This document shows, piece by piece, positions 1 through 30,125 of a stretch of 45,540 bases of DNA. The position numbers and the translations under genes were made by a program. The stretch's first letter is position 1, and each line of letters starts with the position of its first letter. The DNA is taken from NCBI GenBank assembly GCA_944387095.1, contig CALXDP010000015.1:1-45540 (forward strand), in the 5' to 3' direction. Below the pieces are notes generated by a model. That model did no database searches. It was given only the letters and a program-made list of their open reading frames with translations, and had not been told where the DNA came from. This DNA comes from an uncultured Oscillospiraceae bacterium. GTDB taxonomy: Bacteria > Bacillota > Clostridia > Oscillospirales > Oscillospiraceae.

Positions 1-76
1 TGGAGCGAGTGACGAGGCTCGAACTCGCTACCTCCACCTTGGCAAGGTGGCGCTCTACCAGATGAGCTACACTCGC
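1..76 (-). tRNA. tRNA-Gly (anticodon GCC)
   Basis: Reverse complement folds as a full cloverleaf: a seven-pair acceptor stem GCGAGTG/CACTCGC, anticodon stem CCACC/GGTGG around the loop TTGCCAA, a T-loop containing GTTCGAG, and an encoded CCA end (positions 1-3). The anticodon is GCC. It is the last tRNA seen in a four-gene minus-strand cluster; further tRNAs may lie to the left of the window. Confidence 0.97.
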
Positions 77-79
77 AAA

Positions 80-155
<76 letters not shown>

Positions 156-161
156 ATAAAG

Positions 162-238
<77 letters not shown>

Positions 239-261
239 ACAGATGAGTCCCCGAGAGGAGT

Positions 262-337
262 TGGTGGGAACAACAGGGCTCGAACCTGTGACCCCTTGCT
301 TGTAAGGCAAGTGCTCTCCCAGCTGAGCTATGCTCCC
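262..337 (-). tRNA. tRNA-Val (anticodon TAC)
   Basis: Cloverleaf with acceptor GGGAGCA/TGTTCCC (one G-U pair), anticodon stem CTTGC/GCAAG, loop CTTACAA, T stem ACAGG/CCTGT and encoded CCA at 262-264. It is the first gene of the visible cluster, 35 nt downstream of a good promoter. Confidence 0.97.
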
Positions 338-24914: not shown

Positions 24915-24952
24915 AATAAAATCAAAAGGGCGCACCGGAACAAGGTGCGCCC
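24915..24952 (-). terminator. riboswitch-controlled attenuator before purO
   Basis: Minus strand: nine-pair stem GGGCGCACC/GGTGCGCCC with a 7-nt loop, then TTTTGATTTTATT. Its 5' strand overlaps the conserved CTGGGC end of the ZTP aptamer, so ligand-bound aptamer and terminator are mutually exclusive. Confidence 0.9.
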
Positions 24953-25010
24953 AGACGGTCGGCATTTTCCCGCTATACTCCATGTGGTCGCCCCACTTCC
25001 GTCAGTCATA
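24947..25010 (-). ncRNA. ZTP riboswitch (pfl motif)
   Basis: RNA on the minus strand starts TATGACTGACGGAAGTGG, continues with a GTGG/CCAC hairpin and CATGGAG, and ends GCCGACCGTCTGGGCGC. The outer helix GACGG (24999-25005) pairs with CCGTC (24954-24958), and the terminal CTGGGC is the conserved pseudoknot/ligand strand of the pfl motif. Known role: binds ZTP/AICAR, which accumulates when 10-formyl-THF is short, and turns on folate and purine genes. Here it would relieve termination just ahead of purO-purH. Recognised from memory of the consensus, not by a covariance search. Confidence 0.85.
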
Positions 25011-25022
25011 TAGCTGGTATCC

Positions 25023-29280: not shown

Positions 29281-29772
29281 TCAGCCCAGTTCCTCCTGAA
29301 GCTTGGCCTGCTTTTGCGCGATTTGCTGGGCCATAGCCTCCCGGGTGGCGTCCAGCTTGGCGGCCAGGGCCTCGTCGGAGACGGCTAGGATCTGGACGGC
29401 CAGCACCGCGGCGTTTTTGGCCCCATTGATGGCCACGGTGGCCACGGGGATGCCGCTGGGCATCTGGACGGTGGCCAGCAGGGCGTCCAGCCCGTCCATG
29501 GCCCCGCCCTTTAGGGGGATGCCGATGACGGGCAGGATGGAGTTGCCGGCGAAGGCCCCTGCCAGGTGGGCGGCCATGCCGGCGGCGCAGATGAGTACGC
29601 CAAACCCGTTTTTTCGGGCGCTGCGGGCAAACTCCGCCGCGGCGGCGGGGGTGCGGTGAGCGCTGAGGATGCGGGCTTCGTAGGGCACGCCGAACTCGTC
29701 CAGCTGGGCGCAGGCGGCCTTGACCACCGGCCAGTCGGAGTCGGAGCCCATAATGACGGCGACTTTTTTCAT
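29281..29772 (-). CDS. purE: N5-CAIR mutase (class I PurE)
   Basis: Converts N5-CAIR to CAIR. 163 residues; GSDSDWPV at residues 9-16, [21 protein letters not shown] and [25 protein letters not shown] are the PurE core. Class I sequence features suggest PurK should exist elsewhere; none is here. ATG at 29772 behind GGAGGGAGATTTCCAC; an in-frame ATG six codons earlier overlaps that ribosome site and is rejected. First gene of the cluster, behind a structured leader with a terminator. Confidence 0.96.
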
Positions 29773-29835: not shown

Positions 29836-29877
29836 GAGAAAACAAAAAACAGGCCAACGCATTGGTCAGCCTGTTTT
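29836..29877 (-). terminator. attenuator in the purE leader
   Basis: Minus strand: AAAACAGG (29870-29877) pairs with CCTGTTTT (29846-29853), with an inner CCAA/TTGG stem and TGCG loop, followed by TTGTTTTCTC. It lies between the only good promoter and purE, with no promoter after it, so read-through must be regulated. It could alternatively end the glycosyltransferase transcript. Confidence 0.8.
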
Positions 29878-30024
29878 GACTTGTTTTATCGGAAATTGGG
29901 CGCAATAACACCCTGACGCAGAAAATCAAACAGGGCAGAGCACCGGTGAACACCCATGGAAGCACCCCTCTTAAATTCAGAAATTCAGGCCGCAGCATGG
30001 CGCGCTCTGCGGCGTCAGGAATCA
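29878..30024 (-). ncRNA. structured purE leader, unassigned riboswitch candidate
   Basis: Leader of about 145 nt before the attenuator. A closing helix CCTGACGC (30012-30019) with GCGTCAGG (29912-29919) encloses a hairpin CCGCAG/CTGCGG (29990-30012) and a GGTG/CACC region. CCTGTTT (29928-29934), near the 3' side of the domain, can pair with the 5' strand of the terminator (29870-29876) as an antiterminator. It does not match the purine, ZTP, PRPP/ykkC or THF consensus as I know them. Confidence 0.55.
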
Positions 30025-30029
30025 AGCAA

Positions 30030-30058
30030 ACCTTATCATATCGAAAAAGTCTTGTCAA
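30030..30058 (-). promoter_or_regulatory. promoter of the purine cluster
   Basis: TTGACA (30053-30058), 17-bp spacer, extended -10 TGATAAGGT (hexamer 30030-30035). Upstream at 30072-30095 lie three alternating half-sites ATACAA, TTGTAT, ATACAA forming two overlapping palindromes, a possible operator. Confidence 0.65.
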
Positions 30059-30125
30059 ATCAAGACGGAGGATACAATTTTGTATGCTTATACAAGGGAA
30101 TTGGGAGCATAGCGGGAAAGGGTGT

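What the first reader, a model, noticed from the sequence alone, without database searches (positions are those of the whole stretch)
29836..30058. Unassigned attenuator-type leader in front of purE
The only promoter for the purine cluster lies about 180 nt before a clear intrinsic terminator, which itself lies before purE with no second promoter after it. The RNA between can form a closing helix (30012-30019 with 29912-29919), an internal hairpin, and a strand (29928-29934) that can pair with the terminator's 5' arm. That is riboswitch architecture. I cannot fit it to the guanine, PRPP/ykkC, ZTP or THF consensus, so it may be a new or divergent purine-responsive element.
Basis: partly seen in the sequence, partly recalled or inferred. 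Interest (0 to 1): 0.75.

Follow-up and report, generated by a model that had tools for sequence, protein, structure and literature searches.

The report
Translated leader attenuator before purE
In front of the purine-synthesis genes of these gut bacteria lies a short translated leader gene ending at a transcription terminator, with a built-in stop-and-wait sequence for RNA polymerase, so the genes are probably switched by whether a ribosome catches up with a polymerase waiting for GTP, rather than by a riboswitch.

Summary
The same layout stands before purE in 40 of the 41 same-genus genomes with purE, and in related genera. Across 58 distinct, hand-curated leaders three things recur. (1) A leader ORF whose stop codon lies at most 13 nt before the terminator stem, or inside it; its amino acids are not conserved. 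(2) A helix between the ORF's Shine-Dalgarno region and its 3' end. (3) The extended RNA polymerase pause consensus G-11 G-10 T-3 G-2 Y-1 G+1 (window 29912-29901), a 6 of 6 match in 43 of 58, with GTP as next nucleotide. No antiterminator helix and no aptamer core was found conserved. Best reading: ribosome-mediated attenuation timed by a GTP-dependent pause, a purine counterpart of pyrBI. Anatomy and conservation are shown; pausing, GTP sensing and read-through are inferred. No test here supports a riboswitch. In 9 other genera sampled, purE carries a ZTP riboswitch instead.

The parts
30079..30095 (-). TTGTATAAGCATACAAA, palindromic element about 16 nt upstream of the -35
   Evidence: a similar element by regular expression in 24 of 30 same-genus leaders, and as TCGTACAAGCCTACAAA by eye in the other 6; single occurrence in the own genome at up to 2 mismatches; regulator unknown
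30035..30063 (-). promoter, TTGATT-17-TATGAT
   Evidence: similar layout by eye in relatives
   Evidence: absent from L013 and not seen in the other aligned leaders
29965..29972 (-). Shine-Dalgarno AAGAGGGG of the leader ORF
29962..29967 (-). GGGUGC, 5' strand of the SD-sequestering helix in the window; pairs with 29903-29898
   Evidence: L012; family-level co-variation; shorter in the window than in relatives
29886..29957 (-). leader ORF, 23 codons, MGVHRCSALFDFLRQGVIAPNFR*
   Evidence: corresponding ORF in all 30 same-genus leaders fetched
29901..29912 (-). RNA polymerase pause consensus GGTGTTATTGCG: G-11 29912, G-10 29911, T-3 29904, G-2 29903, C-1 29902, G+1 29901
   Evidence: 6 of 6 match; letters; counts over 58; consensus from PMC6062546 (passage)
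29898..29903 (-). GCGCCC, 3' strand pairing with the SD region
29846..29877 (-). intrinsic terminator stem-loop, followed by T-rich tail
29281..29772 (-). purE (AIR carboxylase), first gene of the cluster purE-purC-purF-like-purM-purN
   Evidence: Pfam AIRC 1.5e-60, SAICAR_synt, GATase_7, AIRS, Formyl_trans_N

Best explanation
A ribosome-mediated transcription attenuator timed by an RNA polymerase pause. RNA polymerase transcribes the leader ORF's start region and then reaches a consensus pause near the ORF's 3' end, where the next nucleotide is GTP. While it waits, the strand that would sequester the ORF's Shine-Dalgarno is still inside the polymerase or not yet made, so a ribosome can load. 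If GTP is scarce the wait is long: a ribosome loads, follows closely and covers the terminator's 5' arm when the polymerase moves on, and purE is transcribed (ON). If GTP is plentiful the polymerase leaves early, the ORF's 3' end folds back onto the Shine-Dalgarno, no ribosome follows, the terminator forms (OFF). Shown by sequence comparison: the ORF, its stop position, the co-varying SD helix, the pause consensus, no conserved antiterminator. Inferred: that the ORF is translated, that the polymerase pauses there, that GTP sets the dwell time, and that read-through follows.
For: Leader ORF in 30 of 30 same-genus leaders. In 58 distinct leaders the stop lies 2-13 nt before the stem (43) or past its start (15). 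The peptide is not what is kept: 13 related pairs give 18/15/18 changes at codon positions 1/2/3 and a synonymous fraction of 0.21 against 0.235 expected. SD x ORF-3'-end pairing exceeds permuted pairing in 29 leaders under 70% identity (z -5.6); of 21 segment pairs only SD with the two parts of the ORF end and the two terminator arms co-vary clearly; in alignment A1 cells changed on both sides 21 against 11.7 shuffled and covariation score 0.159 against 0.120, each 0 of 500. Pause consensus 6 of 6 at the motif in 43 of 58; 6 of 6 anywhere in 20 of 29 representatives against 2.56 (max 8) in 300 shuffle rounds. Pause 3' end 44-68 nt after the start codon, 18-34 nt before the stem. Passages: G-11G-10T-3G-2Y-1G+1 (PMC6062546); bypass of the consensus pause ~22% at 100 uM and ~7% at 10 uM GTP (PMC6336406); moving a stop codon from 28 to 5 bp before a terminator cut its efficiency from ~90% to <10%, ribosomes are unlikely to catch the polymerase in the first 100 bp, and pauses couple the two in pyrBI (PMC4824070).
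Against: No expression, translation, pausing or GTP data. The same passages of PMC6336406 say that bypass appears to plateau at high GTP, so sensitivity at cellular GTP levels is open. The window is a divergent member: 23.2 bits to the family model (E 0.008), 6 bp of SD helix, plus its own insertion. The helix is not clean: a first register failed the shuffle test; in the second, pairs changed on both sides (56 of 500) and pair types (89 of 500) do not stand out and one slid version has more pair types (18 against 16); RNAalifold on the same alignment predicted only 3 local pairs; the register slides between clades. Matches of 5 or more pause letters are common by chance (28 observed, 20.7 expected, max 27 of 29), and 4 of the 20 full matches lie only elsewhere than the motif. 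The 58 were hand-curated for NTG start, frame and motif, so frame conservation (25 of 29 by SD choice alone) is not blind. In more distant purE leaders the ORF-terminator layout recurs (14 of 24) but the full pause consensus does not (2 of 24). The pause consensus was defined in other bacteria.
Confidence: 0.45

Rival explanations
1. Same translated-leader attenuator, but the signal is the rate of ribosome loading (ribosome supply, IF2 and GTP/ppGpp, formyl-methionine supply), not polymerase dwell time. More translation means more purine synthesis.
For: ORF, stop-position and SD-helix evidence fits equally; start codons are GTG or TTG in 24 of 58; the ORF-terminator layout recurs in leaders without the full pause consensus.
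Against: Does not explain the fixed G-11, G-10, Y-1 and G+1, which lie outside the helix or in its bulge.
Confidence: 0.24
2. A riboswitch or a protein-binding hairpin: the SD helix with its conserved NYG bulge binds a purine-related ligand or a regulator and thereby shuts off ORF translation or read-through.
For: Co-varying helix with a 3-nt bulge of fixed Y and G; location at purE, where other genera carry a ZTP riboswitch.
Against: Few conserved nucleotides, variable loop, sliding helix register; no Rfam match in the window or in 27 other leaders of the set; no conserved antiterminator; the bulge letters are those of the pause consensus.
Confidence: 0.12
3. An arrest peptide or regulatory-codon leader: the nascent chain (G-x-x-A-P/S-K) or specific codons stall the ribosome and prevent termination.
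For: A recurrent G-x-x-[A/P/L/V/T]-[P/S]-K end in the same frame; one leader reads GIRAPS (L054), reminiscent of SecM (recalled).
Against: Third positions of motif codons 3 and 4 are fixed (T 56, G 57 of 58) while residue 4 differs in kind (A, V, P, L, T); no protein-level constraint in the body; no residue dominates, arginine is commonest at 16%; stop position varies.
Confidence: 0.08
4. A plain terminator insulating purE, with a chance ORF.
For: Terminators and short ORFs are common.
Against: ORF ending at the terminator in 14 of 24 more distant purE leaders against 1.2 in shuffles, 0 of 6 in ZTP-type leaders; the only promoter match found lies upstream, so purE transcription has to pass it.
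Confidence: 0.04

Closest known systems
pyrBI (pyrL) attenuation of Escherichia coli
   Same: A leader ORF is translated across an intrinsic terminator; a close-following ribosome prevents termination; pausing of RNA polymerase couples the two (PMC5021804 and PMC4824070, passages).
   Different: Purine instead of pyrimidine genes; one consensus pause with GTP next instead of UTP-sensitive U-rich tracts (recalled); an added SD-sequestering helix; Bacillota instead of Proteobacteria.
trp/his leader-peptide attenuators
   Same: Leader ORF, pause and terminator in the leader (recalled).
   Different: No run of regulatory codons, no conserved antiterminator helix.
ZTP (pfl) riboswitch, RF01750
   Same: Found at purE in 12 of 31 leaders outside the set (11 of them in 9 other genera), and once in this window before an IMP cyclohydrolase (24942-25019).
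   Different: No ZTP match at the window's purE leader nor in 27 other leaders of the set searched.
TnaC/SecM-type arrest peptides
   Same: Short ORF, recurrent C-terminal residues.
   Different: No protein-level conservation detected.

Membership tests
pyrBI-type attenuation | leader ORF between promoter and terminator | tested here: met
   translation itself not measured
pyrBI-type attenuation | ORF ends close to or inside the terminator so a ribosome can block it | tested here: met
   58 of 58 curated leaders: stop at most 13 nt before the stem or past its start
pyrBI-type attenuation | translation, not peptide sequence, matters | tested here: met
   18/15/18 changes by codon position, synonymous fraction 0.21 vs 0.235 expected in 13 pairs
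pyrBI-type attenuation | polymerase pauses sensitive to the pathway's own nucleotide | not testable with these tools
   consensus pause with G+1 conserved; pausing and GTP response not measurable here
pyrBI-type attenuation | U-rich, UTP-sensitive pause tracts (recalled) | tested here: not met
   the conserved pause is G-11G-10T-3G-2Y-1G+1, incoming G; so it is filed as working like pyrBI, not as pyrBI itself
amino-acid leader-peptide attenuator | run of codons for the regulating amino acid | tested here: not met
   peptides vary, no dominant residue
amino-acid leader-peptide attenuator | antiterminator exclusive with terminator | tested here: not met
   no segment co-varies with the terminator 5' arm
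known riboswitch (guanine, PRPP, ZTP, THF and others) | match to the Rfam covariance model | tested here: not met
new riboswitch class | conserved aptamer core with co-varying helices | tested here: not met
   one co-varying helix, no conserved core beyond the pause letters and SD
arrest peptide | conserved amino-acid sequence of the leader peptide | tested here: not met
   motif residues vary in kind

The most novel reading that the evidence does not exclude
A GTP gauge made of nothing but RNA polymerase and a ribosome: a conserved elemental pause site whose escape nucleotide is GTP decides, by dwell time, whether a ribosome can load on a leader ORF before its Shine-Dalgarno is folded away, and so controls purine synthesis. 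It stands where a ZTP riboswitch stands in related genera.
Probability: 0.4. Interest if true: 0.82.

Novelty: new variant of a known kind. Interest (0 to 1): 0.66.

Why it matters
Nucleotide-sensing attenuation through polymerase pausing and ribosome coupling is known for pyrimidine genes of enterobacteria. A purine counterpart in gut Bacillota, marked by an evolutionarily conserved consensus pause at a fixed place in a leader ORF, would tie a consensus known from NET-seq to a concrete regulatory decision and make its GTP dependence directly testable. It also gives one operon position where a riboswitch and a riboswitch-free device alternate between relatives.

Tried and rejected
Rfam at gathering score and at E up to 10: no match at gathering score in the leader, 6 below it, taken as spurious. 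DNA similarity of the leader: no second copy in the genome, and in 200 family genomes only short matches in 6 besides the own one, one of which was looked at (L006) and is not a purE locus. Peptide-arrest idea: pursued because of the G-x-x-A-P/S-K end and a SecM-like GIRAPS in one leader; dropped after the codon-position test. Antiterminator: segments tested against the terminator 5' arm, none co-varies. A first register of the SD helix failed the shuffle test; the register with the NYG bulge passed on three of five measures; RNAalifold on the same alignment found only 3 local pairs. A transcription factor of the HutC/UTRA type was considered for the upstream palindrome because Oscillibacter-type loci have a GntR-like ORF (my reading of the translation) before purE; the own genome has no UTRA hit and the site occurs once, so the regulator stays unknown. 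Second copies of the element: in the genus the covariance model's strong matches are all at purE; the best other match is E 0.0025 in G218, not followed up; the second match in the window (35517-35427, E 0.069) was read and looks like chance. Structure prediction and fold searches were not used.

Sequences left out of the counts: 177 purE upstream regions were looked at (30, 107, 40; some are the same genome twice). 60 were curated by hand as having an NTG start, in-frame ORF and motif (58 distinct). Left out although they have a short ORF or a motif-like stretch: L059, L088, L108, L124, L127, L128, L168, L171 (no motif, or motif in another frame). Left out as repeats of others: for example L045, L047, L071, L125, L126, L131, L152, L153. 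The rest have a ZTP riboswitch, another leader, or none that I recognised. L203, L204, L207 were found later, fit the pattern, and are not in the counts. L206, one search match at E 3.5e-4, shows no purE by a motif search of its 1919 bases.

Full report
What is in the window. On the minus strand, one sigma-70-like promoter match (30063-30035) is followed by a 13-bp intrinsic terminator (29877-29846) and then by purE (start 29772) and more of a purine cluster: Pfam names AIR carboxylase, SAICAR synthetase, a glutamine amidotransferase domain (purF-like), AIR synthase and formyl transferase. Rfam finds nothing at gathering score here and only matches taken as spurious below it.

Relatives. PurE is found in 41 of 42 genomes of the genus. 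All 30 upstream regions fetched there contain a short ORF with a GAGG/GGGG-type Shine-Dalgarno and an ATG, GTG or TTG start, ending at a terminator by the scan (60 of 60 curated leaders). A covariance model built from 30 leaders (14 pairs) hits the purE leader in 37 of 42 genomes of the genus (many are its own training sequences). Three more (G203, G223, G226) show the ORF and motif (L023, L081, L156), giving 40 of the 41 with purE. The last, G209, has a ZTP riboswitch at purE (L158) and a PurE only 62% identical, perhaps a misplaced contig. No genome of the genus has a convincing second copy; the best match elsewhere is E 0.0025. In a 400-genome sample of the family 36 genomes match at E 0.1 or better, 13 of them below 1e-3; the weak ones were mostly not examined. 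Named carriers by leader ORF include Pseudoflavonifractor capillosus An386a (L045), Candidatus Enterenecus avicola (L047), Pseudoflavonifractor sp. 524-17 (L052) and Candidatus Intestinimonas pullistercoris (L054). Elsewhere in the family purE often has a ZTP riboswitch instead: Rfam finds it in 12 of the 31 leaders outside the set that I submitted (11 in 9 other genera, plus G209). Some Oscillibacter-type loci have no leader between a GntR-like ORF and purE.

What is conserved. In 60 hand-curated leaders (58 distinct) the ORF ends in codons of the form GGC NNC NNT NYG YCC AAA. Third positions of codons 3 and 4 are T in 56 and G in 57 of 58, while codon 4 encodes A, V, P, L or T, so the constraint is on nucleotides. 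The motif position was chosen by a score that rewards these letters, within the frame. The body of the ORF is not conserved as protein: in 13 independent related pairs, changes fall 18/15/18 on codon positions 1/2/3, and the synonymous fraction (0.21) is that of random placement (0.235, sd 0.06). Yet frame is kept: choosing the start by Shine-Dalgarno alone, 25 of 29 divergent leaders are in the motif's frame, although the collection was assembled with that frame in mind. All 58 stop codons lie 2-13 nt before the terminator stem (43) or past its start (15). So being translated up to the terminator seems to matter, not what is made.

The helix. The Shine-Dalgarno region is complementary to the ORF's 3' end. 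In 51 leaders the mean duplex energy is -15.3 against -12.95 (sd 0.33) when partners are permuted, 0 of 10000. With 29 leaders sharing less than 70% identity the effect stays (z -5.6). Of 21 segment pairs tested on these 29, only Shine-Dalgarno with the two parts of the ORF end (z -4.7, -2.9) and the two terminator arms (z -11.9) co-vary clearly; Shine-Dalgarno with the terminator's 3' arm is borderline (z -1.6, p 0.055), and three pairs run the other way (z +2.1 to +3.1). That argues against a base-composition artefact. In alignment A1 a continuous helix with a 3-nt bulge at the NYG codon shows 21 cells changed on both sides against 11.7 (sd 2.2) in shuffles and a covariation score of 0.159 against 0.120, each 0 of 500. 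Pairs changed on both sides (56 of 500) and pair types (89 of 500) do not stand out. It exceeds all six slid versions on four of five measures; one slid version has more pair types (18 against 16). Against this: a different register failed, RNAalifold on the same alignment predicted only 3 local pairs, and the register slides between clades. I read it as a sequestering duplex rather than a rigid fold.

No antiterminator. No segment co-varies with the terminator's 5' arm; pairing of the ORF body with it is weaker than permuted (z +3.1). The 7-nt candidate in the window is matched by 145 of 2000 shuffles. It joins the 5' leader to the same region of the ORF, so it may replace the usual helix locally; that is inference.

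The pause. The fixed letters not explained by pairing are those of the extended bacterial pause consensus G-11 G-10 T-3 G-2 Y-1 G+1 (PMC6062546, passage seen). Over 58 leaders: G-11 54, G-10 56, T-3 56, G-2 49, Y-1 58, G+1 57. At the motif 43 of 58 leaders match 6 of 6, 12 match 5 and 3 match 4 (16, 10 and 3 of the 29 representatives). Asked without reference to the motif, 20 of 29 have a 6 of 6 match somewhere between 20 nt before the start codon and the terminator, against 2.56 (sd 1.56, maximum 8) in 300 shuffle rounds; 16 of the 20 have it at the motif, 4 only elsewhere, of which 3 sit at the start codon. Matches of 5 or more letters are less telling: 28 of 29 against 20.7 (maximum 27). 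The paused 3' end lies 44-68 nt after the start codon and 18-34 nt before the stem, room enough for a ribosome to load (general knowledge of footprints); at that moment the ORF's helix strand is inside the polymerase or not yet made. In vitro the consensus pause is bypassed less at low GTP, about 22% at 100 uM and 7% at 10 uM, but bypass appears to plateau at high GTP (PMC6336406, passages and introduction seen), so the effect at cellular GTP levels is open. Moving a stop codon from 28 to 5 bp before a terminator lowered its efficiency from about 90% to under 10% through the ribosome; the same paper says ribosomes are unlikely to catch the polymerase in the first 100 bp unless pausing couples them, as in pyrBI (PMC4824070, passages seen).

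Mechanism proposed. Low GTP, long pause, ribosome loads, follows and masks the terminator: purine genes on. High GTP, early escape, Shine-Dalgarno folded away, terminator forms: off. The anatomy and conservation are shown; translation, the pause, its GTP dependence in this organism and the read-through are inferred. The chief rival with the same anatomy is a gauge of ribosome loading rather than of polymerase dwell.

Wider picture. purE leaders among records L065-L121 (Faecalibacterium, Gemmiger, Fournierella, Ruminococcus and unnamed Clostridia or Oscillospiraceae) were, but for L072 and L081, not in the set. Of these 55 regions, 24 non-redundant ones have a terminator by a stricter scan, and 14 of the 24 have a Shine-Dalgarno-led ORF of 12-45 codons ending within 12 nt of the stem start, against 1.2 (sd 1.1, maximum 5) in shuffles. 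One of the 14 (L071) repeats L035 of the window's genus. The full pause consensus is present in 2 of 24 (L071 among them), 5 or more letters in 9 against 4.2 (sd 1.8). ZTP-type leaders as a small control: 0 of 6. Translated-leader attenuation at purE therefore looks broader than the pause-bearing version.

What is in print. Searches of the held library (listings only) showed no paper on a purE leader ORF, on leader peptides in Oscillospiraceae, or on GTP-sensing attenuation of purine genes. The library lacks most subscription journals, so this is weak evidence of novelty. pyrBI as a model was seen in passages of PMC5021804 and PMC4824070; its U-rich, UTP-sensitive pauses are recalled.

Verdict. 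No test available here supports a riboswitch; a translated-leader attenuator of a pyrBI-like kind, new for purine genes as far as these searches reach. My odds: about 0.9 that the leader ORF is a functional part of an attenuator, about 0.7 that the pause consensus is functional, about 0.4 that GTP is the signal.

Noticed in passing
window 30095-30079 (-): TTGTATAAGCATACAAA, a palindromic element just upstream of the purE promoter, similar in same-genus leaders (24 of 30 by pattern, the other 6 by eye), single in the own genome; no UTRA-type regulator in the genome.
   Followed up: partly
window 25019-24942 (-): ZTP riboswitch (60 bits) before an IMP cyclohydrolase gene downstream of purN, so this genome appears to use two different attenuators in one pathway.
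   Followed up: partly
L065-L121, upstream of purE: More distant purE leaders often have their own short ORFs ending at the terminator (14 of 24); their timing signal is unknown.
   Followed up: partly
L050, L053, L061, L062, L095: Oscillibacter-type loci: purE directly follows a GntR-like regulator ORF (by reading the translation) without a leader between them.
   Followed up: no
29 representative leaders, ORF body: The ORF body is poor in A (11.9%) and rich in C and T, and pairs less with the Shine-Dalgarno region and the terminator 5' arm than permuted bodies do.
   Followed up: no
L158 (G209): The one same-genus genome without this leader has a ZTP riboswitch at a purE only 62% identical to the window's, perhaps a misplaced contig.
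   Followed up: no
window 34775-34569 (-) and 4-337 (-): 6S RNA (60.3 bits) and a cluster of four tRNA genes.
   Followed up: no
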